This document shows, one piece after another, positions 4,709 through 37,164 of a stretch of 40,762 nucleotides of DNA. A program made the translations under genes and the position numbers. A model generated the notes under the pieces. That model worked only from the letters and a program-made list of their open reading frames with translations. It was not told the DNA's origin and did no database searches. Origin of the DNA: Microcaldota archaeon. GTDB lineage: Archaea; Micrarchaeota; Micrarchaeia; Micrarchaeales; CABMGC01. Location: assembly GCA_021817125.1 (NCBI GenBank), contig JAKAWC010000006.1:1-40762 (forward strand), in the 5' to 3' direction. How positions within the stretch are numbered: position 1 is the first letter of the stretch; the number at the start of each line of letters is the position of its first letter.

Positions 4709-5593
4709 TCAGTCCAGTTCCTTCCCGAGGAAGTAGCCGAGCGTGAGGTATGCGAGCTTCGCAGCGAGGAAGTCCGGTGCGTGTAGGCCTGCAATCGGAC
4801 TGAGCTCCACGATATCGAGGCCTGCAAGCTGCTTCTTCTCGCCTATCCCCTTTAACATGGCGGCGAGTTCGCCGAATCTAAGACCATCCGGTTCGGGCGT
4901 GCCGACGCTTGGCATCTCGCTCGGGTCCAGCACATCAAGGTCGATAGTAATATAGACATTCTGCAATGTCGCATCGTTTATCCTGTCGATGATGTCGAGC
5001 ACGTCTTTGCCGTGGATGTCGCTCATGAAGAGCACCCTTTCCCTCTTCATCTTCTTCGAGTATGCTTCGTCGATGTTCCTTATACCGACGTGAAGGTAAC
5101 TATCGCATGCCTCCATGACTCTGGACATGACCGTGGCGTGCATGTATTTACTATTGTTGAGCTCGTCGCGTGAGTCGGTGTGCGCGTCGAACTGGATTAC
5201 ACTGAACTCCCGACCCTTCTCCTGCAGCGCCTGGACCGCGCCGACTGTCACTGTGTGTTCGCCGCCGAGTATGAGCGGTATCTTCTTATCATCAAGCAGC
5301 ACGCCGACCTCCTTCTTGACCCGCTTCACCATGTTCTCGGGGGAGCTGTAGTCCGGCTCAAGCTCGTCCATCGTGTAGACGCCAAGCTTGGACAGGTCCC
5401 TACCCAGTTCGTAACTGTAGAGCTCCATCGTGCGGGAGGCATTTATTATCGCCCTAGGTCCCTCACGCGACCCTGTTTTGTATGTGAGCGTGGCGTCGTA
5501 TGGAATCGGGAGGACGGCGACCCGTGCCTTTTTATAGTCCTGATCGTCGAGGCCGAAAAGGTTGTACTTGGGCATCGCATTTAAAGGATTCAT
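4709..5593 (-). CDS. speB: Agmatinase/arginase family ureohydrolase
   Basis: GGEHTVT, FDAHTDSRD, TIDLDVLDPSEMPSVGTPEPDG metal-binding motifs. Start moved from 5659 to 5593 (MNPLNAM...) because a TATA-like CTTTATAA lies at 5616-5623. Confidence 0.9.
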   Translation of the reverse strand: MNPLNAMPKYNLFGLDDQDYKKARVAVLPIPYDATLTYKTGSREGPRAIINASRTMELYSYELGRDLSKLGVYTMDELEPDYSSPENMVKRVKKEVGVLLDDKKIPLILGGEHTVTVGAVQALQEKGREFSVIQFDAHTDSRDELNNSKYMHATVMSRVMEACDSYLHVGIRNIDEAYSKKMKRERVLFMSDIHGKDVLDIIDRINDATLQNVYITIDLDVLDPSEMPSVGTPEPDGLRFGELAAMLKGIGEKKQLAGLDIVELSPIAGLHAPDFLAAKLAYLTLGYFLGKELD

Positions 5594-5615
5594 GTATCCC
5601 ATTTGTGCGTCAGGG

Positions 5616-5623
5616 TTATAAAG
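5616..5623 (-). promoter_or_regulatory. TATA-box-like element for the agmatinase gene
   Basis: CTTTATAA on the minus strand ~23 nt before the preferred ATG, consistent with leaderless transcription. Confidence 0.45.
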
Positions 5624-5665
5624 CCTTTCCCGGCCTATTTTGTATTGGCAGATACCCACAAGGAT

Positions 5666-5730: not shown

Positions 5731-5791
5731 AAAACCCACCATATTATATATATTACGCCGAACACAGTAGATACGAAATATTGGTGAAATA

Positions 5792-7729
5792 ATGCCAGGT
5801 CCAGCAATCATAAAACCAAGCGCATTTACGCGCACAGACAAGACAGCAGTAGCAAAGGAACTTATTGCCATGCTCTCGGAGCAGAAGGCAGAAGTGACTG
5901 AATTCTTTTCATACCCTGCAGGCGGGCCGAAGAGCGGAATGATGAGCAGAGAGGACTTCATTGCCGCGAAGTGGGCCACGCCAGAGCAGAAGAAAGAGAC
6001 AGAGGATGCTGGGCACGCGCTAAGCACGGGTGCATTGCAGGTGTGGTGGAATGAGATCCGGGCGATCGCGAAGGACGCCGAAGTGGACGCATCTACGAAA
6101 GCTGACCTGAAGAATGCAGCGGACCAGCTGAACGATCTTATCGGAGATAAACATTTTGAGATGTGGGGTTCGAGGCCGACTATGCCACTGGAGAATCTTG
6201 GACCTACCCTTGACTTGAATACTGCGACGAGAGCTGATGCTGAGAAAGCAGTAAAGGTGAGGAGAGATGCACTGCACGCGGAATGCGGTTTCAGGGCAGA
6301 CAATGAGGCAGCACTGGAGCCCGCGGTTCTGGCGAGGCAGAAGCGCATACTTGACCTATTCCAAGACAAGACCCCTGAGGGGAAGTCGAGCGAAGACAAC
6401 GTAGAGAGCAAAGCAGGTAATGAGGAGGTCGCTGGGAAGGGCAAGGCAGAGGAGCTCGAGGCAGGACCTGGAGAGGTCAGGATGCCAGAGAGGATACCTC
6501 AAGAGCAGGAGTCTTTGCTTATTGATGCCACACAGACCACATTTGCAGCTACTACTGGAATGAAAACACGCGAGGCGCTCGAAGCGGCGTTGACGAAGAT
6601 GACCGATAAAGAGGGCGTGCTCGCAACTGCAGTTACGGTTTTGACAAAAACAGGAGCGACGGCGACTGACGGGGATAAGATAAGGAGAGCGCGCAATGGC
6701 GTGACAGGCGCTCAGGCTGAGGTAAGGACGGTCCTTGGAGCAGTCACGGAAGAGCTCGAGGGCAGGCGTGAGGCGCTTGTCGACACCGCGTTGGTAGGAA
6801 TACCACTTATGGTATCTGAACTTAGCAATGAACTTGGTGCAGGCGACGAAGCGCAGGACTACAAGCCCAAGCTCGATGCGCTTGGGCATGCGACCGAGAC
6901 TGACGTGAAGAGACCAAGCCCCTCGGATCCGGCAGTCATGGTACCATTGACATACAGCATAGCGGACCTCAAGTGGGCCCAAGAGGAGATAATCACCCTG
7001 GGTAAGGGAAACAAGGAGCAGAAGAGGCATAGTTATGTCCACTTCCTAAAGAGGGCAGAGAAACTGGGAGCGTTGAACGACCCAGAAGCGACCACGACGA
7101 TAGATGGTAAGACGTATACTACAGAGCAACTTGAGAATATGGCAAGGGACCTCAAGCAGCAGCGCCAGAGACTGAGCGCTGCGGTGGATGTGATAACCTC
7201 CAAGAGGGCAGAAGCAGCCGGAGTCTTGGAAGGGGACAGCCCAGAAGCGAACAAAACGTATAAAGTAATCACCACCACGCTTGAGACGATAGCGGCAGAT
7301 AACAAGCATGCAAGGCTAGTGATTGTAGATGCACTCAGGACGGTAGGCATAGACCTGAAAGACAGGGACGTCGAGGTCGACCTAAGAGCCAACGCACAGA
7401 CGGCGTGGAAGTGGCAGGATGTTGAACTCGAGAGCCTTTCGGTTAACCGGAGAGTTAAAGCGGCACTGCGCAATGCGACCGTGAGGTTTAAGAACTTTTG
7501 GAAGGGAACGTCCGTAGAGGAGCTGGACCTTGAGGCTAGAGCCGGAACGATCAAAGCAGCACAGACACTGTTGAAGGAGGTAATGACCATGCCGGAGCTG
7601 AGGTATCAGCTTGCAGGCATAGAGCCGTTGACCGAGCAGGAAAGGCAGAAGGCGTTTAGGGCAGAGATACGCGGGTCAAGTGCAGCCGCATCACCTTCCA
7701 CAAGCTCCGCAGCCGCGGCATCGGCCTGA
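5792..7729 (+). CDS. Uncharacterised large helical protein, cassette member P1
   Basis: 645-aa ORF after TATA-rich ATATTATATATATTA and GGTGA; soluble, charged, S/A/P-rich C-terminal tail; no family recognised. Confidence 0.75.
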   Translation: MPGPAIIKPSAFTRTDKTAVAKELIAMLSEQKAEVTEFFSYPAGGPKSGMMSREDFIAAKWATPEQKKETEDAGHALSTGALQVWWNEIRAIAKDAEVDASTKADLKNAADQLNDLIGDKHFEMWGSRPTMPLENLGPTLDLNTATRADAEKAVKVRRDALHAECGFRADNEAALEPAVLARQKRILDLFQDKTPEGKSSEDNVESKAGNEEVAGKGKAEELEAGPGEVRMPERIPQEQESLLIDATQTTFAATTGMKTREALEAALTKMTDKEGVLATAVTVLTKTGATATDGDKIRRARNGVTGAQAEVRTVLGAVTEELEGRREALVDTALVGIPLMVSELSNELGAGDEAQDYKPKLDALGHATETDVKRPSPSDPAVMVPLTYSIADLKWAQEEIITLGKGNKEQKRHSYVHFLKRAEKLGALNDPEATTTIDGKTYTTEQLENMARDLKQQRQRLSAAVDVITSKRAEAAGVLEGDSPEANKTYKVITTTLETIAADNKHARLVIVDALRTVGIDLKDRDVEVDLRANAQTAWKWQDVELESLSVNRRVKAALRNATVRFKNFWKGTSVEELDLEARAGTIKAAQTLLKEVMTMPELRYQLAGIEPLTEQERQKAFRAEIRGSSAAASPSTSSAAAASA

Positions 7730-7818
7730 GTTGATGAGAGAGCCGCTGGCTCCTCGTTTTAATATTCATGGTGCCTTTGATGGCACCGGAAGTCAGGAGA
7801 AAGCAGTGGGGAACAATA

Positions 7819-9894
7819 ATGGCAGCAATTATAGCAAAACCTGGACCGTCGGCGAGACCGGCAGACTCTCAGATAAAGGAAGCTGTTTCTAGGAATCTGT
7901 TTGCCCTGGCAGACGATGTTAGTGTGAGATTAGATGCCGTATTCGTAGGTCCGGATGGCAAGCCAAAAGGGAGGGCAGCCATCATGAACGAATTGAGGGA
8001 TAGTCCGGCATTCAGCACCAGCATGCACGAGCTTAACGTCAGGTTCCTCACACTGTATTATATCCGGGATAAGGTCAGCGACCCTGCACTATGGGCACGG
8101 GCCGTGGAGATCGAGAAGAGGTATGAAGTCTTGACCGCAGGTCACAGCACATCGAAGGAGGAGGTTCAGGATGCTGGGGCGAAGGCACTACCATCGGGTT
8201 TCTCGGATATGGGGGCAGCCACGACGACGATACAACAGACCATAACTCAAGCGATGGAAGACGCGGGAGTGCCGCAAACTGAACGGTCAGTCATGTTCAA
8301 TAGGTTGGAAGCGGACATCTTGCTTAATGTAGCGTTGGCACATCAGTTGCCAAGCGAACCGGCTGCACCACAGGCTGCTTCTAAGTCAGAAGAGCCAAAT
8401 CCTGCGGCTCAGCTTCCTGCGGCCAAGCCCGAGGAGACGGGACGCACAAGGATGTTGGAGGTGCCTTCGGGAACGGAGTTGCTAGACAGTTTGATTGCAG
8501 AGCTTGAAGGAGAAGGTGCGCCGGATGACCTGAAATCAGAAGGCCCAGTTTCGCCAGCTGCAGGTGGGGGAACGCCGCCGCCATCTGAAGCGCCCGCCGT
8601 ACCTGCCATGGGAGCCGATGTGCCGTTTGTGCCATCGATGGCGCCTCCGGCTGCACACATTGCGGAGAGCCCCGCGGCACAGCCGCCTGAAACATCAAGA
8701 CCAGTTACCATGCCGGCGCGGATGACCGCATCCTCGTCAACGAAACACACGCCGAGGACACCGGGAACGCTGCAATCAAGTGAACCTAAAGCTATGGAAA
8801 TGCCGTCTGGAGGGACGCAACAGCCACAGCCTACCGCAAGTGCAGGAGTACCTATGGCTCAGGCTACACAGCCTCATGTAGAGATTCCATTCTATACATT
8901 TGGAGATGACCCCAAGGCAGCACCATCGAATGGCGCACGTGCAAAGAAACCAGTGCATGTCTTCCCGTCAGGGCTGCGAGTAGTCGAGATAACGGAAGAG
9001 AGGGCGAAGAGAGTGATAAATTCACTGACGGCACAGAGGGTCGGAGAACTTCTTGCCCTCCAGGCGCAACCAGTACCAGATGGCTTTGTTGTGGCTGTAG
9101 AGGAACTAAACCATGTTGTTAGGGCGTATGCTTTCCCTAAGGATAGGCTGTTGGAGCTCAATATAAGACCTGTCGCACTTGACCACCCGACAAAGAAGGA
9201 GCTTCCTCCATTGCGTCCATCGGCTTCCCCGCGGATATCTCCAAAGCGCAAGCTCGAAAACGACTACGTACCGGTTATAAGAACGATATTGAGTATCCCG
9301 CGGGGAACGGGTCTCGTTCAAGATGGCGTTAACAGGATGCAAAAGCAGCTTGAGGACCTCGAAGGGTTGATGAACTTCTTTAAGAAACAGCGAGAGGCTG
9401 ACCGGCCAGATGCGGGAAAAGACGCCTCGACAGTAAAGGGCATTAAGTTTGCGTTTGATGGATACAGAAAGGCAAGAGAGGGAATGTATTCTTCCTTTGC
9501 CACTCTTATGGGCAGAGAACTATGGATATTCATAAGCGAGAAGAACGTGCCGGCGGCGGACAGGCATGACCAATGGGACGAAGACGCTGCACCGACAACG
9601 TTGCCGGAGATAGCGTCGAAGATGCCGGGACTGCTAGAGAGAGCCTGGAAAAGGGTGAAGGAGGAGGACCTTGGGATGATGCGGATTATAAGAAGCGTGA
9701 TCGATGCCGATCCGATAGTTGCGGATGTACTTAAACAGGAAGAAGAGATGATAGCACTCGTTAAGGCATGCAAGGGAGTGTGTCGGTCGACTATGCCTGC
9801 ATCAAGCGGCGCGTCGGAGCTATTCGTTGAGATAGAGCGAGAGTTTGTGAAATCCTTAACTAGGCCAAAAGCAGAAGTACCTGCCCTGGCTTGA
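7819..9894 (+). CDS. Uncharacterised large protein, cassette member P2
   Basis: Start MAAIIAKPGPS preferred over 7768 (GGGGA upstream of ATG, N-term similar to P1); long Pro/Ala-rich linker then folded C-terminal half. Confidence 0.75.
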   Translation: MAAIIAKPGPSARPADSQIKEAVSRNLFALADDVSVRLDAVFVGPDGKPKGRAAIMNELRDSPAFSTSMHELNVRFLTLYYIRDKVSDPALWARAVEIEKRYEVLTAGHSTSKEEVQDAGAKALPSGFSDMGAATTTIQQTITQAMEDAGVPQTERSVMFNRLEADILLNVALAHQLPSEPAAPQAASKSEEPNPAAQLPAAKPEETGRTRMLEVPSGTELLDSLIAELEGEGAPDDLKSEGPVSPAAGGGTPPPSEAPAVPAMGADVPFVPSMAPPAAHIAESPAAQPPETSRPVTMPARMTASSSTKHTPRTPGTLQSSEPKAMEMPSGGTQQPQPTASAGVPMAQATQPHVEIPFYTFGDDPKAAPSNGARAKKPVHVFPSGLRVVEITEERAKRVINSLTAQRVGELLALQAQPVPDGFVVAVEELNHVVRAYAFPKDRLLELNIRPVALDHPTKKELPPLRPSASPRISPKRKLENDYVPVIRTILSIPRGTGLVQDGVNRMQKQLEDLEGLMNFFKKQREADRPDAGKDASTVKGIKFAFDGYRKAREGMYSSFATLMGRELWIFISEKNVPAADRHDQWDEDAAPTTLPEIASKMPGLLERAWKRVKEEDLGMMRIIRSVIDADPIVADVLKQEEEMIALVKACKGVCRSTMPASSGASELFVEIEREFVKSLTRPKAEVPALA

Positions 9895-9963
9895 GACGCA
9901 CCAGACGAACGTCAGGGGCATGGTTTATAGACTTGGACCGGATCATATCTAACGAGGGTTCTG

Positions 9964-10554
9964 ATGAGGGTTCTAGTCCAGTCAACTAGAGAGAGTATTC
10001 TTCTGCAGAAGCTTCAGGAGGCAACGCATGAACTCGGCCAGACAATAGAGTGCTTACTCTTTAAGGATGGCAAGGTTAAGACATCGACGCAAGTCAACAG
10101 CGAGTTAAACTCCAGTGCAGATACTAAACTCCGTCGAGAGTTGGTTGCAAAGTGGTTAACTCTTCGTTTTCTCAGCGGGGCGCTTGATGATGAGGGCTTG
10201 AATGACCGCTTGGAGGCATTTGGCCCCGTTCTCGAACATTCGCTCCGGGGCATTCCGGGGATCTGGAGCGCGTCGGAGGACCTTTTGCGTGCTAGAGGTC
10301 CAGCGGTAGACCACCGGACAGCATATGGCGTCGAGAAGAGCATAGACGACTGTGCCCTTGAGGCTGTTGCACTCACGCATATACCATTGTGGAACAAGCC
10401 GTACTTTATGATGGACATCCGAAAGCTGCTTCGGCTTAACGAGACGGAGATGTGCGGGCTTATTACTGTTGAGGAGAAGCAGACAGAGGCAGCAAAGCCG
10501 CCTGGTGACGCTACGACAGAAGCGAGCAAGACGGATGAGCATTCCTCCTTGTAG
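9964..10554 (+). CDS. Uncharacterised protein, cassette member P3
   Basis: 196 aa; N-terminal half aligns by eye with P2 (DGKxK...EL..S...EL...LTL...D..L..R); disordered C-term. Confidence 0.65.
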   Translation: MRVLVQSTRESILLQKLQEATHELGQTIECLLFKDGKVKTSTQVNSELNSSADTKLRRELVAKWLTLRFLSGALDDEGLNDRLEAFGPVLEHSLRGIPGIWSASEDLLRARGPAVDHRTAYGVEKSIDDCALEAVALTHIPLWNKPYFMMDIRKLLRLNETEMCGLITVEEKQTEAAKPPGDATTEASKTDEHSSL

Positions 10555-10708: not shown

Positions 10709-11578
10709 ATGAACAAGCTTGCCGCCGTCCTGAAACTTGTCAGGATAGAACATAGCATAATGTCTGCGGTCGCCGTGATTGCTGCCGAGCTTATCGCAGG
10801 AAGACTGCCAGGGCTTCCCCTCCTCTTGCTTAGCCTTGTCGCACCTGTTTTCCTGAACATGACCTCGTTTGCGATTAATGATTACTTTGACATTGAGACA
10901 GACAGGCTGAACAAGAAGAAAAGACCGCTCGTTACCGGAGACCTAGCACCAGATACCGCGCTGTATATAACTGGAATCACGCTTGTGGTGGGGGTAGCGG
11001 CGAGCTATTTTATAAACACCGCCTGCTTTGAGATAGCCATCATATTCGGCATCTTTGACGTACTCTACAGCTACAAGCTGAAGGACATCCTGCTCGTCGG
11101 CAACTCGTACGTCGCATTGTCCATGGCGATAGCGTTCGTCTATGGTTCTTATGTAGTCACGCCCGCTTTGGGGCCGGCCATCACCATTGTCACGGTGCTG
11201 GTGTTCTTTAGCGGAATGGCCCGCGAGATCCACGGGACCATCAGGGATTACAGGGGAGACCTGAGGGCAAGGGGGGCGAAGACCCTGCCCATGGCAATCG
11301 GGATGCGCAGTGCGTCCATGATTGCATTTGCTTTGTACTTATGCTCCGCGTTGCTCGGCGTTTATCTGTTCCTATACGTTGCGCCATTCAGGCTCAACAT
11401 AGCATACAGCCTTATATTCGGTGTTGCGATGGCAATGCTGTTCTATGTCGGGGTGATATTTATTACAAGCAAGAGGCAGAAGGACTACGACAGGACGAGG
11501 AACATATCCCTGGCTGCGATGGCGATAGCAATAATCGCCCTGCTCATAGCCCCTTTGGCGCCTTTTGCTTATATCTAA
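10709..11578 (+). CDS. UbiA-family prenyltransferase (archaeal DGGGP synthase-like)
   Basis: NDYFDIETDRLNKKKRPLVTGDL motif, second motif REIHGTIRDYRGDLRARGAKTLP, multi-TM. Confidence 0.88.
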   Translation: MNKLAAVLKLVRIEHSIMSAVAVIAAELIAGRLPGLPLLLLSLVAPVFLNMTSFAINDYFDIETDRLNKKKRPLVTGDLAPDTALYITGITLVVGVAASYFINTACFEIAIIFGIFDVLYSYKLKDILLVGNSYVALSMAIAFVYGSYVVTPALGPAITIVTVLVFFSGMAREIHGTIRDYRGDLRARGAKTLPMAIGMRSASMIAFALYLCSALLGVYLFLYVAPFRLNIAYSLIFGVAMAMLFYVGVIFITSKRQKDYDRTRNISLAAMAIAIIALLIAPLAPFAYI

Positions 11579-13836: not shown

Positions 13837-15564
13837 ATGGCAGTGCAGACCTCACACTTCACACCTGTATTCTCTTCGGGCAGCAAAAAGTGGACTACGC
13901 GGAAGGTTGTGCTCCTCCTTCTGCTTGAACTGCTCGTCCTATCTGTAAGGCTGGTCACAAGCCCAATCCCGTCATATGTCAGCGTAGGGGACGAGGGCAT
14001 ATACATGAGCATCATGTACTACAACGCATACGGCGGGCAGAGCGAGGGCGGGATATACCGCGGCTTTGGCGGAGTGAACTTCGGCAACATAAACGATAGC
14101 CATTTTGATCCGGGAGTGGTATTCAACTTTTACGACTCTTTTATATATCCGGAGATCTTGATAGGGGACTTGTTTGGAGTATCCGCAACCAATGCAATTG
14201 CGTTTGTGCTCCTGATGTCGCTTGTGGAGGCTTTGTTCGCCTTTTTGATCATAGACCATATAGCGGGCACCCGGTCGGCGACGCTGGGAATGATACTTCT
14301 TGCGTTCTTCCCGCTTGATGTGGTATACTCAAACTACGTCCAGCCGTTCGTGCCTCTTGCGGCGTTCACGGCCATAACGCTGTTCTTCTTCGTCAAATCA
14401 CTTGACGACAAGAAAGGACTTGCAAAATATGCGCTCGCGGCAGGAATATTCGCAAACATAGCCTACGAAGCCAATCCCTGGGGGCTGCTGGACATCATGT
14501 TTATCGTGGCGTATCTTGCCGCCACTTATGTTTGGAGCTCGGCCAAAGGCAAAAGGTCGGTCAACTTGCGAGTGCTTGCGTTCTCCGCGTTGGGGTTCCT
14601 GCTAACATTCTCGATCACCGGAGTTTATTATTTTGCACTGTCAGGGAACTTCTTTCTGTATCCTGCAGTAGACCATAATGTCTTCGCCAGGCAGGTGTAC
14701 CTTACTTGGAATCAGGGCAGCACGTTGATCGGACTTCCGCAGCCATTCGGAAGTTATGTGGTAGACTACGTATTCTCCGCGCCTAACTTTTATGTTCAGA
14801 CACTGCTGGGTGGGCTCACAGGAGACGGCTTTCAGGTATACCTGCTCTCGGTGATGCTCTACCTTGCGATATTCGGATCTATCATGGCCTTGTTAAAGAG
14901 AGTTAGAAAGGAGATCAAGCATGCTTTGTTGTTCGCTGCTTTCTTCGTGGTACTTCTCTTTGCGCTGAACTTCCTGCCTACGGCGATGGTGCCAGTTCCA
15001 GGCGGGCTGACGGTCATAGGGATGGCAGACCACATGTATGTGTACCTGGAGATCCTTGCGCTGCCAATCGTCATTGTCAGTGCCGTGGCTATAGGCTGGC
15101 TGTTCGATAGGGGAGGCATCTGCAGGGGCATCGCCTTGGCTATGATAATCACTGCCCTCTTCGGAGATTTCCTAAGCTTAAGTTATGATAGTGCATATTA
15201 CAAAGCAGGGCTTTACTCGTACATCGCTTTTGCGGGCTTCTACAACCAGCACAAGAACGCCACTTTTTATGTAAATGATCAATTTGGGGGCAATGCGAGG
15301 TTCACCGTAGGCGGCAGGGCCGGCAACATAGTGTTTGTTTCGACGTGCCAGCCAGTCTCAACATTTGCGGACGGCTCTTACTTGGTGGAGGGAGGAACGA
15401 TAAGCATATCGGCGTCGCCTTCACTGATGCAGAGGATGGAAGACTGCTACGCCAACTTCACGCGCAATATTACTCCCGTTTACTATGAACCAAACCCGTT
15501 CGCGGCGTATGCATCACCAGAGCCCCCGCTGGAGATTTACCGGATTGGCAACGGTACCCGCTAA
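13837..15564 (+). CDS. GT-C fold (GT39-like) membrane glycosyltransferase
   Basis: Multi-TM; SVGDEGIYMSIMYYNAY acidic loop motif; soluble C-term. Confidence 0.7.
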   Translation: MAVQTSHFTPVFSSGSKKWTTRKVVLLLLLELLVLSVRLVTSPIPSYVSVGDEGIYMSIMYYNAYGGQSEGGIYRGFGGVNFGNINDSHFDPGVVFNFYDSFIYPEILIGDLFGVSATNAIAFVLLMSLVEALFAFLIIDHIAGTRSATLGMILLAFFPLDVVYSNYVQPFVPLAAFTAITLFFFVKSLDDKKGLAKYALAAGIFANIAYEANPWGLLDIMFIVAYLAATYVWSSAKGKRSVNLRVLAFSALGFLLTFSITGVYYFALSGNFFLYPAVDHNVFARQVYLTWNQGSTLIGLPQPFGSYVVDYVFSAPNFYVQTLLGGLTGDGFQVYLLSVMLYLAIFGSIMALLKRVRKEIKHALLFAAFFVVLLFALNFLPTAMVPVPGGLTVIGMADHMYVYLEILALPIVIVSAVAIGWLFDRGGICRGIALAMIITALFGDFLSLSYDSAYYKAGLYSYIAFAGFYNQHKNATFYVNDQFGGNARFTVGGRAGNIVFVSTCQPVSTFADGSYLVEGGTISISASPSLMQRMEDCYANFTRNITPVYYEPNPFAAYASPEPPLEIYRIGNGTR

Positions 15565-16823
15565 TCGAAGTCGGACATGCTTGCCTGCTTCCTCTTTGGC
15601 TTCTTGTCGTCTGGAGATGCCTTATTCATCACGTCGACTACGCCGAACACGCCATCATATCCTGGAATGAGCTTGACCCGTTCCGTGCGGACGTTCTCTA
15701 TCCCTTTTGCGACATCGGCATCCATCTCTGCTATCTGCGCAGGGTCGATGTTTAGCAGGATATCAAATTCGGTGCCCAATCGGGCCAGCATATCGTTGTA
15801 GGCCCGCTTTACTGCGGTGGAGGTCACTACGGACGTCTTTACCTGTGCAATTATCTCTAGAAGAGGCACAGCGTGGACAGTCGGAATTGCGGCTTTTGGC
15901 AGATGACCTTCGGGCCTGTCCGCAAGCTGGTCGACCCTGTGCTCTACCCCGATGGTGAGGGGTCTCCCGCATTTCGGGCACCTGCCATTGTACTTCTGCG
16001 CCTCTTTCGGACTCAGTGATATCTGGCAGTTGCGGTGACCGTCGTAGTGATACTTGCCCTCGTCCGGATAGAACTCGATGTTCTTCTTGAGCTTCTTGTT
16101 CTTTATTGCATTCAGGATTGCGGCATATGACAATCCATCTTCGCTGAATTCGAACACAGTTGCTTCCCTCCCTATCTTTGGCAGCGAATGGGCGTCGCTG
16201 TTCGAGATCGGAAGGTATTTGTCGAGCTTTGAGAGCCTCCAGAACATCGCAGGGTCGGCAGAGAGACCGGTCTCGGCACAGTAGATGTATTTGGCCTGGT
16301 CCCCATATGCCTCCTCTATCGAGTCGAACCCGGAGAACGACCCCAGAACGCCGAACCAGGGAGTCCAGCTGTGTGCCGGGAAGATTATTGCATCTCTGTT
16401 GACGCCGATTACCTTCTCTACGAGTTCGCTGCACGACATGCTTAGTGCGGGTCTGCCGTCAGACTCCAGCGCCCCTCTGGTCTTTACCTCATCTATTATC
16501 GCATCGACGTCGTCCAGGCTTGGCACAAGGATGCAATTGTGCACCCGCCTGTTCTTGCCCCCTGCGTCGAATATGTTTGATACCTCTGAACTGAGGACAA
16601 AGCGAGTGCCAGTCTTGGACCCTTTTACTTTGTACAAGCCTGGTTCCGCGTCCTCGAGCTTCATCTTCAGCTCGTCGACCCACAACGGGTGCGTGAAGTC
16701 GCCGGTGCCTATTACCTTTACCCCTTTCTCCTTGGCAGCCTCATCGATGCCTTCTATCGTTATGTTGGGGCTACAAGCCATGGCGTGTCTGGAATGGATG
16801 TGGAAGTCGGCTATGTACTCCAT
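15561..16823 (-). CDS. PHP-domain protein, COG1379-like (UvrD/helicase-associated family)
   Basis: DFHIHSRHA, GTGDFTHP, SNSDAHSL motifs plus Zn-binding CP.CGRPL; start MEYIADF at 16823. Confidence 0.85.
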   Translation of the reverse strand: MEYIADFHIHSRHAMACSPNITIEGIDEAAKEKGVKVIGTGDFTHPLWVDELKMKLEDAEPGLYKVKGSKTGTRFVLSSEVSNIFDAGGKNRRVHNCILVPSLDDVDAIIDEVKTRGALESDGRPALSMSCSELVEKVIGVNRDAIIFPAHSWTPWFGVLGSFSGFDSIEEAYGDQAKYIYCAETGLSADPAMFWRLSKLDKYLPISNSDAHSLPKIGREATVFEFSEDGLSYAAILNAIKNKKLKKNIEFYPDEGKYHYDGHRNCQISLSPKEAQKYNGRCPKCGRPLTIGVEHRVDQLADRPEGHLPKAAIPTVHAVPLLEIIAQVKTSVVTSTAVKRAYNDMLARLGTEFDILLNIDPAQIAEMDADVAKGIENVRTERVKLIPGYDGVFGVVDVMNKASPDDKKPKRKQASMSDFD

Positions 16824-16827
16824 GCAT

Positions 16828-17487
16828 TCACTTGTTTGCCGTGACCCCGTTCTTCGGGCAGATTTTGTTGAGTGTACATTTGCTGCAGATTGGAGTCGGC
16901 GCCTGGCACACCGCGCGCCCATGGAACTTGATGGCGTATGCTATCCTGCCCCAGTCCTTCCTGTCGACCAGCCTCATCAGATCGAGCTCCATTTCGTCTG
17001 GCTTTGCACTCTTGCTCAGACCAAGCCTGAGCGACACCCTATTGACGTGTGTGTCGACAGGTATACCCTCCGCGATGCCGAATGCGTTGATTAATATGGT
17101 ATTTGCTGACTTTCGGCCTATGCCCGGAAGCTCGACCAGTTCCTCCATGCTGTTCGGCACCTTGCCGCCGTGCCTCTCCTCTATTAGCTTGCAGGCCTTG
17201 ATTATGCTGGCGACTTTGTTGCCTGCGAAGAGTATGCCGTGGATATGCTTTAGGATGTCCTTCGGGTTGGCATTGGCGTAGTCCTTTGCAGTCGTGTAGT
17301 GCTTAAATATCTCAGTCGTGCACTTATTGACGGTCTCATCCCTTGACCTTGCAGCGAGGATTATCGCTACCATCATCTCGAGAGGATTTGAGAACTTGAG
17401 TATCTCCTTTGCGCCCGGATATTCCTTCTTCAGCAACTCCAATGCCTTCTTCGCAGACTCCTTGTCGAGCAGCTTTGATTCGGGCAT
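16828..17487 (-). CDS. nth: Endonuclease III
   Basis: HhH ELPGIGRKSANTIL, VDTHVNRV catalytic Asp, C-terminal Fe-S cysteines CQAPTPICSKCTLNKIC. Confidence 0.94.
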   Translation of the reverse strand: MPESKLLDKESAKKALELLKKEYPGAKEILKFSNPLEMMVAIILAARSRDETVNKCTTEIFKHYTTAKDYANANPKDILKHIHGILFAGNKVASIIKACKLIEERHGGKVPNSMEELVELPGIGRKSANTILINAFGIAEGIPVDTHVNRVSLRLGLSKSAKPDEMELDLMRLVDRKDWGRIAYAIKFHGRAVCQAPTPICSKCTLNKICPKNGVTANK

Positions 17488-32196: not shown

Positions 32197-35100
32197 TCAG
32201 CACACGTTTGTCACGGTTATCAGCTGGTTGTACGTACCCGCAGAGGTGGTGCTCGGCACCTGGACCCCGAAGTAGATGCTGTTCGAACCGCTCGACGCTA
32301 CGGGTATGTTGGTGTTCGTTGCGGTAAGGGTGAGCGGTGTCCCTGTGAAAGTGATCTGCGACGCTGTATCCCACATCGTGTTGGACACGCCGAAGCCGAA
32401 GCTTCCACCGAGTAGCCAGTTCCCGCCAGAGACCCAGGCATAGGTATTGGTCGCCCCTAGGTTGTTGTCCGTGACCGCGACGTCCGTGTTCGTCGACTTG
32501 CCGCCATTGAGCGTCCCGAACGCGAGGGAGTTCGTCGGCGTTATGGATATCGTGCACGATATGGACGTGGACGTGAAGGTTATGGTCTCTGTGTTGTTGG
32601 TGGGGTCCTTGCCCGATGCTGGCGAGTCGGTGAAGCCTGCGATTGTGTTGACCGTGAAGCTGTAGTTACCAGGATCGGTATAGAATATTATAGTATTGGT
32701 GGTGGATGTGCCATTGACCCCGTCGTATATGACATTCCATGCCTGCCCACTCGTCAGGCCGGTCTCTATGAAGACGGTGAGCTTGCGCACGGTTTCTAGG
32801 GATGCGAACTGCACGGTCGGCGCGGTGTAGTTGTAGAACCTTACCCTTGTCCAATATATGTCTGCGGATGAACCGATCACGCCGTATATGAGCCTGGAGA
32901 AGTTCAGCACGCTCAGGAACTTTGCGCTTGCCATGTGTGTAAAGTAGTTGAGCTCTCCGGACATGTTGTCCATGAACGGTACTATGCCGGTGTAGACCGC
33001 CAGCCCTGTGACCTCGCCCACTGTCGCGGTGCCCTGGCATGACGTCGCAGAGGTGAAGTTCTCGTACTGCAGCACGCCCGCTGTGCAGCCATCGGTGAGG
33101 TCGTACGAGTAGTTGCCTACGGTCGCGGACTGCGATGCTAGGGTGAACCCCCACTGCCTTGCGTGGCTCGAGCTGGAGAGGTTGCCCATAGCTATCGCAG
33201 AGTCTAGTGCCAGTGGTATGATGTTGACAGGCACGCCGATCGTGCCTGTAACGTTCTCCTTGGTCAGGCCAGGCGCCGCTATCTCTAGGCTGTTGCCGTT
33301 AAAGACTATGTTCGTGCCTGCGGCGATCCAGTTGCTCGGCAGGGCGCTCAGGCCGCCCCACGCCTGGTAGTATGGGAAGACGCCCACGCCGTCGTCGTAC
33401 TGCGCATATGTTGCGGATAGTATCGGCGATTCACCGGTAACCGTGTTGGACAGGAAGCTTATGTAGTTGCCACCGAACTCGTTTCCGGAGAAGCCCATGT
33501 ACACTGTGAGACCTGTGAGCCCAAGATAGCCATGCGACAGGTTGAGCCAGAAGATGTTGTTGCCGCTGGTGGAGAGCATCGTGTTCTGCGTCTCGCTGAG
33601 CACGTTGCCCTCGAACCATGAAGGCATTATGGTTCCGTTGGCGTAGAAGAACTCCACGTTGTTCATGGATGTGTTCTCGTGCGTCTTGTACGCTATGCTG
33701 TTGACGGCGAGCATCTGCTCGGCTGGCGTGTGCACCACGGGTATCGGGGGAGAGGAGTACTGGTAGGTTATGACGTTACCGCTACCGCCGTTACCGCCAG
33801 GATCTGTGCCTGAGCCTGCGCTCCCAGTGCCTCCGGCATCGGTGTACGTGCCTGTCGTCAGGCCGCCTGAGCCATAGGCGAGCAGTATCGCTCCTCCGCC
33901 TCCTCCGCCTCCTCCGCCGGCAGTTCCGGTAATGGCGCCTCCGCCTGAGCCGCTCGTAATTATCTTGCCCGCTATTAGGGTATTGGCTTCTATAAGTATG
34001 CCTTCACCTCCGCCTCCCCCTGAGCCGCCTGTGTCGCCGTGACCTTCTGCTGCGCCGCCGCCTCCTCCTGCCCCTGATAGGTAGTTCTGGATGCCGTTCT
34101 CGTACCAGTAGATTACATTCGCGTTGGTTATCGGAGACGGCGCTGCCGGCGAAGCGCCTACTCCTCCTGCGGCGTTGAAACCTCCGCCTGCGCCGCCTGC
34201 TGCAAGCGTGGCGCCGCCATTTCCTCCTGCAGCCGTCTTACCTGAGTCGTCGCCGCCCCCTCCTGCCCCGGAGCCCGCGTAGGAGTTTGGCACAGCGCCG
34301 CCAGGCGAGCCCACGCCCCCAGAGCCGCCCGCACCGCCGTTCGCCAGCGTTCCGGTTATTATGTTGCCGTTGTTCGTGACCTTGCCCGCGCAGATTATGC
34401 TGTATCCGTTAGTGGTGAGCGTCACTGCGCTGCCGATCGTCAGGTTGCCGCAGAAGATATCGCTGGACAGCACCGTGTTTGTGGAGTAGGTTATGGACGG
34501 CAGTATGAGGTTTACGGGCACGAGCCAGTCTATGTTCGCAGGAGGATTGTTCACATGGAGCTTTGCAGACTGGGTTGCGCCGCTAGTTATGTCGTTAGAT
34601 TCTATGGTGTATGTGCCGGCCGTGAGCGTGTTCGCATCGTAGGTCACCGTGTTCGTTACAGGGCCCGCCTTCACCACGCCGTTTATCTCTATTTCTATGC
34701 TGCCCGTCGTGGGTTGCGCTGTGGCGGTGATGTTATCGTCGACGAATGCAAATGTGGGATTGAACTGGATCTTGAGGAGCGGGGACGATATGAAAGTGAT
34801 GCTCTTCGTGCCGCCTGCAAGGAAGTTGCCCTGTGGCACTGTCGGAGAGTATACTGTGGTGCCAGAGGTGACGTCGGGTATGTTGAAGAAGAAGTTGCCG
34901 GGGTTTGTCAGGAAGCTTATCGTATTCGTCGTGGAGCTGTTGGTGACGACATGGTACGTGACCTGCCAGTCGGCACCCACAGGCAGGCCTGTTTCTGTAA
35001 AGTGTGTCACGGTGTTTGCGACAGAGTAGTATGCGGTCACCGTGCCGGCACCTGCCACACTCAGGTTTGCGTTGGGGGAAGAGATGTTGTCTATCTGCAG

Positions 35101-37164
35101 GGTTATTGAATTGCTGACTGTCCAGTGGTCGAATACATAGCCGTGCATCGCGTTTGCGGTTATGCTTCCGGTGCCTAAGAGGTTGGCTGTCTGGGCATTC
35201 GTATAGCTCTGGCTGCCGATTATTATGTTGCCTGCGGTTGATGGATTATCGTCGAGAACGACATTGTATGGCGCCCAGACGTATGCGGCGGCTATCTGAC
35301 CGTTCTTGCCGCTCGCGTCGACCATCGTCATATTGTATGTGCCTACGGCCTGGTTCTGGCATACCGCCTGCAGTAGCTGCATGTAGCGCACGGCAGACGG
35401 TGCGTTGATAGCATAGGTGCATGACGGAGGTATGGACGTGGACGTCCAGCCGCACGTGAAGCCGCAGCTGTCGCCCATGTCGATTATTGTGAAAGATCCG
35501 GGCTTGACGACGTTATAGGTATAGGTGTACGTTCCTGCAGCAACGCCGTTGCCGGAATAGGACCATAGCGTACCATCTGAAAAGAGGAGGTTCGCGCCTA
35601 TGCCTGCTATAATTCCCTCGGCGTCGCCGGCGGCGCTAGGTGTTATGTCCGTGTGGCTGCCTATGGAGTTTACAGTGTGCCCCGCATAGGTGCCGTTGGG
35701 ATTCGTTCCGCCGCCGCTGCTGTAACCTGAGATGCCATAATCGTCCAGGGCAGTCACCGGAGCCGTGTTCACGAAGCTCACATTGGAGAACCCTATCTCT
35801 GCGGCGCCGGTGTAGTAGTAATCGTAGAATCCGCTTGGCATGGTAACCTTGGTCACGTTGCATACATTACCAGCGGTCGTGCACGTGTTTATCGTGTTGT
35901 CGGCGGTGTAGCTTATTGCGTAAGTCGAGAGGGAGTCTGATATCGCAGAGAAATTGTACGATGTCGCGTCTCCGCCTAGGTATTTTGTTGGGAGTGCCTG
36001 CCAGTTGTTGTTCACAAATTTCATCACCGTTATGCTGCGTGGGTCTATTCCCCTCGCCAGGAGCGCAGACTTGGACACGGAGAAGTTGTAGGTGACGTTC
36101 TGGAGGTATGGATCTACGCTCTGGTTCGTGCCCAGTACGGTGTCGTTTATCTGTATGTACTCAAGCGTCGGCCTGTTGTTGTAGGTGTTGCGCACGCTGA
36201 ACGTCGACGAGAACAGTTTTGCCGCCTGGCTGGGCATGTTCGACTGATTCGTGATGGTCATGTTGAATACCACCCCCGCCTTAAGGTATGCCGTCATCCC
36301 TGTCAGCGGCGAGTCTACGAGCCCGATGTGCACGGCGCGGCCTCTCGCATTTACGGTGCCAAATGCGTGGCCGTTCGAGTACGCCAGCGCCACGTTTGAC
36401 ATGTTTGCATTCGACACCAGGATGGTGGTCGTGGTAAGCGTTGACACCGACGATGTCATCGACGTGCTGAGCGTGGTGGACGCCGTGGACACAGTGGATG
36501 ATGCTGAGAGCGTTGATGCGGTGGACGATGTAGAGAGCGTTGACACAGTTGATACTGTAGACGATGCGGTGGAGAGCGTGGACATCGTAGATGCCGTAGT
36601 TGATAGCGTGGAAGAGGTAGTGGAGAGCGTGGATTCTGTGGATACGCTCGACACGGATGTCGATAGCGTGGACGCCGTTGATACCGATGTTGAGAGCGTC
36701 GAGAGTGTAGTGGATGCGGTGGAGAGCGTGGACATCGTGGAGAGCGTTGTCGAGAGGGTCGAGAGGGTGGAGATAGTCGAGAGCGCCGTGGAGAGTGTGG
36801 ATACCGTAGACGCTGTAGACACGGTCGACACTGTGGAAGCGCTGGTCGGGAGGGTGGAGAGCGTCGAGACAGTGGATACAGTAGACATTGATGTCGAGAG
36901 GGTCGATGCTGTAGATAACGTAGAGACGGTGGTCGACAAGGTCGACACTATCGTGGAGAGCGTCGAGATGGTGGACACCGTGGAGATAGTGGTGGATTCT
37001 GTGGATACGGTAGTAGACGCCGTCGATATTGTGGAGAGCGTAGTGCTCGACGAGCTTAGCGTCGCCTGCATGGGCACCTGAAGGTGTGGCTGCTGTGCAG
37101 ATATGGACAACAGGATGCCCAAGGCTAGCAGTAACGCGATTCCTGTAAAGCTCCTGAATGCCAT
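32197..37164 (-). CDS. Giant adhesin-like surface protein (1655 aa)
   Basis: Signal peptide, ~212-residue Ser/Thr stalk, PGF-pre-PGF-like region (NNNWQALPTKYLGGDATSYNFSAISDSLSTYAIS), Gly-rich region, two FxETGLxxGxxW repeats, C-terminal Cys-terminated domain. Confidence 0.85.
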   Translation of the reverse strand: MAFRSFTGIALLLALGILLSISAQQPHLQVPMQATLSSSSTTLSTISTASTTVSTESTTISTVSTISTLSTIVSTLSTTVSTLSTASTLSTSMSTVSTVSTLSTLPTSASTVSTVSTASTVSTLSTALSTISTLSTLSTTLSTMSTLSTASTTLSTLSTSVSTASTLSTSVSSVSTESTLSTTSSTLSTTASTMSTLSTASSTVSTVSTLSTSSTASTLSASSTVSTASTTLSTSMTSSVSTLTTTTILVSNANMSNVALAYSNGHAFGTVNARGRAVHIGLVDSPLTGMTAYLKAGVVFNMTITNQSNMPSQAAKLFSSTFSVRNTYNNRPTLEYIQINDTVLGTNQSVDPYLQNVTYNFSVSKSALLARGIDPRSITVMKFVNNNWQALPTKYLGGDATSYNFSAISDSLSTYAISYTADNTINTCTTAGNVCNVTKVTMPSGFYDYYYTGAAEIGFSNVSFVNTAPVTALDDYGISGYSSGGGTNPNGTYAGHTVNSIGSHTDITPSAAGDAEGIIAGIGANLLFSDGTLWSYSGNGVAAGTYTYTYNVVKPGSFTIIDMGDSCGFTCGWTSTSIPPSCTYAINAPSAVRYMQLLQAVCQNQAVGTYNMTMVDASGKNGQIAAAYVWAPYNVVLDDNPSTAGNIIIGSQSYTNAQTANLLGTGSITANAMHGYVFDHWTVSNSITLQIDNISSPNANLSVAGAGTVTAYYSVANTVTHFTETGLPVGADWQVTYHVVTNSSTTNTISFLTNPGNFFFNIPDVTSGTTVYSPTVPQGNFLAGGTKSITFISSPLLKIQFNPTFAFVDDNITATAQPTTGSIEIEINGVVKAGPVTNTVTYDANTLTAGTYTIESNDITSGATQSAKLHVNNPPANIDWLVPVNLILPSITYSTNTVLSSDIFCGNLTIGSAVTLTTNGYSIICAGKVTNNGNIITGTLANGGAGGSGGVGSPGGAVPNSYAGSGAGGGGDDSGKTAAGGNGGATLAAGGAGGGFNAAGGVGASPAAPSPITNANVIYWYENGIQNYLSGAGGGGGAAEGHGDTGGSGGGGGEGILIEANTLIAGKIITSGSGGGAITGTAGGGGGGGGGAILLAYGSGGLTTGTYTDAGGTGSAGSGTDPGGNGGSGNVITYQYSSPPIPVVHTPAEQMLAVNSIAYKTHENTSMNNVEFFYANGTIMPSWFEGNVLSETQNTMLSTSGNNIFWLNLSHGYLGLTGLTVYMGFSGNEFGGNYISFLSNTVTGESPILSATYAQYDDGVGVFPYYQAWGGLSALPSNWIAAGTNIVFNGNSLEIAAPGLTKENVTGTIGVPVNIIPLALDSAIAMGNLSSSSHARQWGFTLASQSATVGNYSYDLTDGCTAGVLQYENFTSATSCQGTATVGEVTGLAVYTGIVPFMDNMSGELNYFTHMASAKFLSVLNFSRLIYGVIGSSADIYWTRVRFYNYTAPTVQFASLETVRKLTVFIETGLTSGQAWNVIYDGVNGTSTTNTIIFYTDPGNYSFTVNTIAGFTDSPASGKDPTNNTETITFTSTSISCTISITPTNSLAFGTLNGGKSTNTDVAVTDNNLGATNTYAWVSGGNWLLGGSFGFGVSNTMWDTASQITFTGTPLTLTATNTNIPVASSGSNSIYFGVQVPSTTSAGTYNQLITVTNVC
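36424..37059 (-). repeat. Low-complexity Ser/Thr (x-S-T) repeat tract inside the adhesin CDS
   Basis: Near-continuous LST/VST/AST triplets over ~212 codons; minisatellite-like 9-nt periodicity in DNA. Confidence 0.85.

What the first reader, a model, noticed from the sequence alone, without database searches (positions are those of the whole stretch)
5792..10554. Three-gene cassette of unrecognised proteins sharing an N-terminal domain
Three co-directional genes (645, 691 and 196 aa) show no family I recognise. P2 (DAVFVGPDGKPKGRAAIMNELRDSPAFSTSMHELNVRFLTLYYIRDKVSDPALWARA) and P3 (ECLLFKDGKVKTSTQVNSELNSSADTKLRRELVAKWLTLRFLSGALDDEGLNDRL) align clearly; P1 is weaker (shared AII-KP-SA start and G-PK). 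C-terminal parts diverge completely. None has an obvious signal peptide or TM. This pattern of common module plus variable effector regions is the best candidate here for an undescribed intracellular system.
Basis: partly seen in the sequence, partly recalled or inferred. Interest (0 to 1): 0.7.

Follow-up and report, generated by a model that had tools for sequence, protein, structure and literature searches.

The report
Fast-evolving helical-protein cassette of Micrarchaeota
Three neighbouring genes of a tiny symbiotic archaeon encode soluble proteins, at least two of them built on one shared helical module; they are probably extreme members of an undescribed, fast-changing protein family that recurs across Micrarchaeota, often beside giant surface-protein genes, and its function is unknown.

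Summary
The observation largely holds. P1 (645 aa), P2 (691 aa) and P3 (196 aa) are real, co-directional, soluble proteins with no match in Pfam, NCBIfam, PHROGs, PADLOC or PDB. P2 and P3 share an N-terminal helical module; P3 is little else. P1's share is weaker (in register, p about 0.02). A P1-P2 cassette without P3 lies at the same place, between agmatinase and UbiA genes, in the only other genome of the genus; its module parts are 25-31% identical while agmatinase and UbiA are 73% and 64%. No relative was found in the other 77 family genomes.

Going further, I found an unmodelled helical domain in 38 of 164 genomes (17 of 54 genera) of the order. It sits in long soluble orphan proteins, often tandem, in some genera directly downstream of giant secreted proteins and in four other genera directly beside UbiA. 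The P modules are probably diverged members (profile-profile p from under 0.01 to about 0.01, plus position), but this is not proven.

Most likely they are hypervariable protein-interaction adaptors or effectors tied to the symbiont's surface and host contact. Function is inferred from context only.

The parts
5792..7729 (+). P1, 645-aa soluble helical orphan protein
   Evidence: orthologue Q1 at the same locus in G001; no family
5834..6166 (+). P1 N-terminal module (residues about 15-125), weak member of the shared module
   Evidence: conserved with Q1, E 1e-4; profile P 0.0096 against P2/Q2, in register; helix order like P2's in a poor model
7133..7657 (+). P1 C-terminal region conserved with Q1 (residues about 448-622)
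   Evidence: 0 of 400 shuffles
7819..9894 (+). P2, 691-aa protein (alternative upstream start 7768)
   Evidence: orthologue Q2 in G001, E 1e-11; Q2 start fits 7819
7846..8343 (+). P2 N-terminal helical module (residues about 10-175)
   Evidence: shared with Q2 and P3; six helices, best-predicted part of the model
8344..8928 (+). P2 Pro/Ala-rich linker, predicted disordered
   Evidence: pLDDT about 20-34
8944..9228 (+). P2 small alpha/beta segment with a partial, weak CARF-like match
   Evidence: PADLOC CARF3 model E 0.002 (whole protein) and 1e-4 (segment), six shuffles none; not shared by Q2
9301..9858 (+). P2 C-terminal helical region, not shown conserved in Q2
9964..10554 (+). P3, 196-aa protein that is almost only the module
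   Evidence: similar to Q2 and P2 over most of its length; absent from G001
4709..5659 (-). flanking agmatinase/arginase-family gene (SpeB), divergent
   Evidence: Pfam Arginase E 1e-67
10709..11578 (+). flanking UbiA prenyltransferase gene, positional anchor across relatives
   Evidence: Pfam UbiA E 7e-37
5741..5755 (+). AT-rich TATA-like stretch upstream of P1, by eye
   Evidence: sequence read; not tested
7770..7787 (+). perfect inverted repeat GGTGCC-N6-GGCACC between P1 and P2
   Evidence: sequence read; role unknown

Best explanation
P1-P3 are a tandem, genus-specific set of soluble alpha-helical proteins built on one N-terminal helical module (certain for P2 and P3, likely for P1). They are probably diverged members of an undescribed, very fast-evolving domain family of Micrarchaeota, called here the IN-domain after its motif (E)IN..N..LF.E. 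Proposed working: the module folds as a bundle of about six helices and is a shared docking or assembly part, with P3 as module alone, P1 carrying a long helical body, and P2 a disordered linker plus a small alpha/beta and a helical part. The variable regions bind changing partners. Because members of the wider family are encoded beside giant exported surface proteins, the likely setting is the inner side of, or delivery through, the symbiont's surface and host-contact machinery, which would explain the rapid change. Shown: real genes, module shared by P2/P3, orthologous locus, rapid divergence, the wider domain family and its gene neighbours. Inferred: P1's module, membership of P1-P3 in the wider family (about 0.6), and every functional step.
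For: Orthologous locus with strong divergence: conserved N-terminal parts 26% (P1) and 29% (P2) identical against 64% for UbiA and 73% for SpeB. P2/P3 module. Wider domain: a profile of eight orphans from other genera, none from a UbiA locus, detected orphans beside UbiA in four further genera: L044 1.6e-8, L094 2.4e-7, L089 1.8e-6, L078 7e-5, first gene of L085 1.3e-4 among 13 targets. A 13-sequence profile hits 38 of 164 genomes, 17 of 54 genera. Position beside UbiA in 4 of 17 genera, chance about 4e-6. P/Q modules against that profile: score 21.9 over 94 columns; 0 of 150 column shuffles (max 13.8), 0 of 150 sets of unrelated helical segments (max 18.0), reversed 8.8. Adding P/Q modules makes the gene just upstream of UbiA in G026 the best new hit (E 0.014; reversed control 0.64). 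IN-domain genes lie directly downstream and co-directional of a giant secreted protein in G017 and G089, one ORF further in G079 and G050, and beside it in G007.
Against: With profiles of 32 and 40 sequences the P/Q score falls to 13.6 and 14.1, at the edge of the controls (max 14.1-14.2), and HMM scores of P1, P2 and P3 alone are about zero. The 13-sequence profile does not hit the P genes in their own genome. No giant surface gene lies beside this cassette. Structure models are poor overall (pLDDT 42 and 39) and fold searches gave nothing significant. There is no expression, localisation or interaction evidence.
Confidence: 0.4

Rival explanations
1. Ordinary genus-specific orphan genes: cytoplasmic helical scaffold proteins under weak constraint, without a role at the surface or host contact. 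The shared module reflects local tandem duplication and the link to the wider family is helix-level resemblance.
For: No homologue in the other 77 family genomes or 295 class genomes; absent between the same flanking genes in G003, G009, G013; atypical codon usage of P2, P3 and Q2 in both species, as expected of weakly expressed genes; weak profile scores with larger alignments.
Against: Position beside UbiA is shared with IN-domain genes of four other genera, and the 13-sequence profile comparison beats helical controls.
Confidence: 0.3
2. Effectors delivered into the host archaeon: the conserved N-terminal module is the recognition part for a non-classical export route and the variable C-terminal part acts in the host.
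For: Constant module plus variable remainder, also between orthologues P2 and Q2; fast divergence in a presumed symbiont; giant surface proteins beside wider-family genes, and a published proposal that giant surface proteins of nanohaloarchaea secrete unknown effectors (PMC10266531).
Against: No export signal, no toxin-like or enzyme domain; P3 is module only; P1's C-terminal region is conserved; in several wider-family members the domain is C-terminal.
Confidence: 0.15
3. Remains of a virus or other mobile element inserted between the agmatinase and UbiA genes.
For: Insertion-like distribution at a conserved site and atypical codon usage of P2 and P3.
Against: No match in phage records, viral contigs or viral families; no significant viral fold match; no mobile-element gene among the neighbours; kept in both species of the genus in the same order.
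Confidence: 0.07
4. A defence or signalling system, with the alpha/beta segment of P2 as a CARF-like ligand sensor.
For: Partial match of P2 residues 396-450 to a CARF model, E 0.002 for the protein and 1e-4 for the excised segment, none for six shuffles; Csa3_N at 0.09.
Against: Only positions 15-69 of 209 matched; Q2 has no such match; no CRISPR, nuclease or other defence gene among the neighbours.
Confidence: 0.06

Closest known systems
SPEARE-type giant surface proteins of nanohaloarchaea and their downstream genes (PMC10266531)
   Same: DPANN symbionts; giant membrane-anchored surface protein with further genes directly downstream, proposed to serve host contact or secretion; some wider-family IN-domain genes lie in a similar position
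   Different: P1-P3 are not beside a giant gene; no VirB4/TraG ATPase was found beside them; IN-domain proteins match no ATPase profile
Polymorphic-effector-like design (constant module, variable remainder), as a design only
   Same: constant N-terminal module, variable remainder, tandem copies, rapid divergence
   Different: no toxin domain, no immunity gene, no export signal, and one copy is module only; not filed as a member
CARF domain proteins
   Same: weak profile match over about 55 residues of P2
   Different: partial, not conserved in the orthologue, no partner genes; not filed as a member
Highly expressed hypothetical proteins of Ca. Micrarchaeum harzensis (PMC8623467, PMC8975820)
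   Same: Micrarchaeota rich in low-conservation hypothetical proteins
   Different: the passages read do not describe this domain; whether those proteins carry it was not tested

Membership tests
Shared module of P2/P3 (P module) | significant sequence similarity over the N-terminal module of P2 and P3 | tested here: met
   P2-Q2 E 1e-11, P3-Q2 E 0.002, P2/Q2 profile-P3 E 2e-4, 0 of 200 shuffles
Shared module of P2/P3 (P module) | P1 carries the same module | tested here: inconclusive
   profile P 0.0096 in register, shuffle p 0.02; adding P1/Q1 raises the score with the wider family from 14.1 to 21.9
IN-domain family (defined here) | hit by the family HMM at E below 0.01 | tested here: not met
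   P1, P2, P3 score about 0 bits; not hit in own genome
IN-domain family (defined here) | profile-profile similarity in register beyond helical controls | tested here: inconclusive
   21.9 against control maximum 18.0 with 13 sequences; 13.6-14.1 against 14.1-14.2 with 32-40 sequences
IN-domain family (defined here) | common context: long soluble orphan, often tandem, in several genera directly beside UbiA | tested here: met
CARF domain proteins | full-length CARF domain, conserved in orthologues | tested here: not met
   match to 55 of 209 positions, absent from Q2
Known anti-phage defence systems (PADLOC) | match to core models of a system | tested here: not met
   no other match up to E 1
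Viral or phage proteins | homologues in viral collections | tested here: not met
SPEARE-type surface/secretion systems | giant surface protein with VirB4/TraG-type ATPase at the locus | tested here: not met
   neighbours are agmatinase and UbiA; of two wider-family giants scanned one has an SLT domain and one no match
Delivered effectors | export from the symbiont | not testable with these tools
   no signal-peptide-like or TM stretch; an export route needs experiment

The most novel reading that the evidence does not exclude
Micrarchaeota possess an undescribed, hypervariable family of soluble helical proteins that assemble through one shared domain and form the cytoplasmic or delivered component of a surface apparatus built around giant surface proteins; P1-P3 are its version in this genus, evolving with the host.
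Probability: 0.2. Interest if true: 0.85.

Novelty: categorically new. Interest (0 to 1): 0.55.

Why it matters
How Micrarchaeota hold on to and exploit their host archaea is open, and about a third of their genes have no assigned function (PMC8623467). A domain that links otherwise unrelated-looking orphan proteins in 17 genera, and places some of them directly beside giant surface proteins, gives a concrete set of genes to test for a role in host contact. The novelty claimed is that of a protein family without a match in Pfam, NCBIfam, PHROGs, PADLOC or PDB; that it is a new kind of system is not shown.

Tried and rejected
Family libraries and PDB sequence profiles: chance-level matches only, apart from the partial CARF match, which I did not adopt. 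AlphaFold2 with 2-3 sequences gave poor models, usable only for the helix map of the P2 module; fold searches had no E below 0.001. Scans of GTDB contigs with P2 and of viral contigs with P1, P2 and an IN-domain protein: nothing. I considered that P1's C-terminal region might hold the IN-domain; the profile test did not support it (score at the null mean). Some hits of the leading queries were judged chance: a transposon TnpB-like protein and several enzyme-like or short shadow ORFs. That P2's middle segment is the same domain as Q2's repeats was not supported (p 0.03-0.6), although Q2's first two repeats are related to each other (E 9e-6). Shared origin of the La/Lb domain with single module G2 by direct comparison was not significant.

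Full report
WHAT IS THERE. The window is a whole contig (40,762 bases) of an 893-kb genome, 85% complete. Named relatives found through the UbiA gene are nearly all 'Candidatus Micrarchaeota archaeon' assemblies, so the organism is a DPANN archaeon of that group. P1 (5792-7729), P2 (7819-9894) and P3 (9964-10554) run in the same direction between a divergent agmatinase/arginase-family gene and a co-directional UbiA prenyltransferase gene. They are soluble by hydropathy and match no known family.

THEY ARE REAL GENES AND EVOLVE FAST. Searches find relatives of P1 and P2 only in G001, the one other genome of the genus: Q1 (572 aa) and Q2 (637 aa) lie in the same order at the same place, followed directly by UbiA, with no P3. 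BLAST similarity to Q1 and Q2 is confined to the N-terminal parts (26% over 112 aa, E 1e-4; 29% over 155 aa, E 1e-11), whereas the flanking genes are 46% (CARDB), 73% (agmatinase) and 64% (UbiA) identical. P1's C-terminal region (about 448-622) is also conserved with Q1 (0 of 400 shuffles), but P2's C-terminal part is not shown conserved with Q2's (p 0.43). No relative was found in the other 77 family genomes nor in 295 class genomes. In G003, G009 and G013 the agmatinase and UbiA genes are adjacent with nothing between, so the cassette was gained in this genus, or lost or moved in those.

THE SHARED MODULE. P2 and P3 share the module: BLAST E 0.003, P3-Q2 E 0.002, profile P2/Q2 against P3 E 2e-4 and 0 of 200 shuffles. 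P3 is almost the module alone. In the P2 model the module is the best-predicted part (pLDDT mostly 60-83), with six helices (13-42, 52-60, 65-82, 89-106, 128-148, 153-174); residues 165-501 have very low confidence, as a disordered linker would. The P1 model is poor (pLDDT 39) but lists helices in the same order (17-38, 53-60, 64-93, 100-125, 147-165, 169-190). P1's sequence match is weak: p 0.016-0.31 for single comparisons, profile P 0.0096 in register, reached by 2% of shuffles.

A WIDER FAMILY. Looking at what lies upstream of UbiA in other Micrarchaeota showed large orphan genes there in several genera. A weak lead from one of them led to two tandem orphans in G017, La (458 aa) and Lb (312 aa), which share a domain (BLAST E 2e-10). 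A La/Lb profile hit parts of other long orphans. A profile of eight such sequences, none from a UbiA locus, then detected the UbiA-neighbour orphans of four other genera: among 13 targets E 1.6e-8 (L044), 2e-7 and 2e-6 (L094, L089), 7e-5 (L078) and 1e-4 (first gene of L085). After adding L044, L089 and L094 only, the L085 gene scored 1.8e-4 in a set of 2,381 ORFs, against 0.66 for the best reversed control. The 13-sequence profile (A11) hits 38 of 164 genomes of the order, 17 of 54 genera, two genomes in the sister family, nearly all in uninterrupted ORFs of 230-750 aa and with many members outside the training set. The motif is roughly (E)IN..N..LF.E, followed by a helix with a conserved N. 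There is no convincing Pfam or PDB match. Four of 17 genera have such a gene directly beside UbiA, against a chance of about 4e-6 (the gene number of 950 is my assumption, and I looked at UbiA loci first, although the profile that found them had not been trained on them).

ARE P1-P3 MEMBERS? Profile-profile comparison of the five P/Q modules with the 13-sequence profile scores 21.9 over 94 columns, above all 150 column shuffles (max 13.8), all 150 sets of unrelated helical segments (max 18.0) and the reversed alignment (8.8). Adding the P/Q modules to the profile makes the gene just upstream of UbiA in G026, the positional counterpart of P2, the best new hit, E 0.014 against 0.64 for the best reversed control. 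With 32 and 40 sequences, however, the P/Q score falls to 13.6 and 14.1, at the edge of the controls, and HMM scores of the single proteins are near zero. I tried several alignments, so these p-values are not independent. My estimate for membership is about 0.6.

CONTEXT OF THE WIDER FAMILY. IN-domain genes are often tandem (G017, G014, G068, G002, G028; three copies in G062). They lie directly downstream and co-directional of a giant (about 2,000 aa) secreted, C-terminally anchored protein in G017 and G089, with one ORF between in G079 and G050, and beside it in G007. One of two such giants scanned has a transglycosylase SLT domain. In genus g2 the copies lie next to a thermopsin-like protease gene; in G033 and G023 they lie beside a series of paralogous proteins with membrane or signal segments. 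In genus g4 the domain follows ankyrin repeats (repeats recognised by eye). No such giant gene lies beside the P cassette.

HOW IT MAY WORK. The best-supported reading is a shared helical docking domain on proteins whose other parts change fast, used at the inner side of, or in delivery through, the host-contact surface. In nanohaloarchaea giant surface proteins with genes downstream have been proposed to secrete unknown effectors into hosts (PMC10266531), and hypothetical proteins make up 60% of the ten most expressed genes of a cultured Micrarchaeum (PMC8623467). Both are analogies, not tests. The alternative, ordinary genus-specific scaffold proteins under weak constraint, is nearly as likely. 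P2, P3 and Q2 have unusual codon usage; as it persists in both species it fits weak codon selection or low expression better than recent transfer.

VERDICT. Observation mostly right; interpretation partly right. The main gain is an unmodelled domain family across Micrarchaeota, to which the cassette probably but not certainly belongs. Function is not established.

Noticed in passing
L007:9623-12058 (G001:C66): The PHP-domain-like gene of the sister genome is 811 aa against 453 aa in the window (15561-16922) and seems to carry an intein with a homing-endonuclease-like part, absent from the window's copy (by eye).
   Followed up: no
L148:8386-14727, L196:10271-16000, L206:9015-16001, L210:10041-16001, L211:3-5948: A family of giant (about 2,000 aa) secreted, anchored proteins shared by several Micrarchaeota genera, one with an SLT domain; IN-domain genes lie beside them.
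   Followed up: partly
L203:7514-8386, L202:7168-8034, L212:7863-8768: Ankyrin-like repeats followed by the IN-domain in one protein, in a conserved gene order (genus g4).
   Followed up: partly
L198, L199, L200, L207, L213: Genus g2: one to three tandem IN-domain genes, in most loci with small paralogues (MNATMQK...), next to a thermopsin-like protease gene in a conserved gene order.
   Followed up: partly
window 32197-37164 (minus): 1,655-aa secreted-looking Ser/Thr-rich protein without Pfam match; a stretch resembles a protein beside an IN-domain gene in G100 (L195; E 3e-7).
   Followed up: no
L007:4970-6883 (Q2 residues about 227-464): Two related copies of a small alpha/beta-looking repeat (E 9e-6) in Q2, not demonstrable in P2.
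   Followed up: partly
window 7819-10554 and L007:4970-6883: Codon usage of P2, P3 and Q2 is far from that of their neighbours in both species (correlation 0.44, 0.18, 0.50), although G+C is normal.
   Followed up: partly
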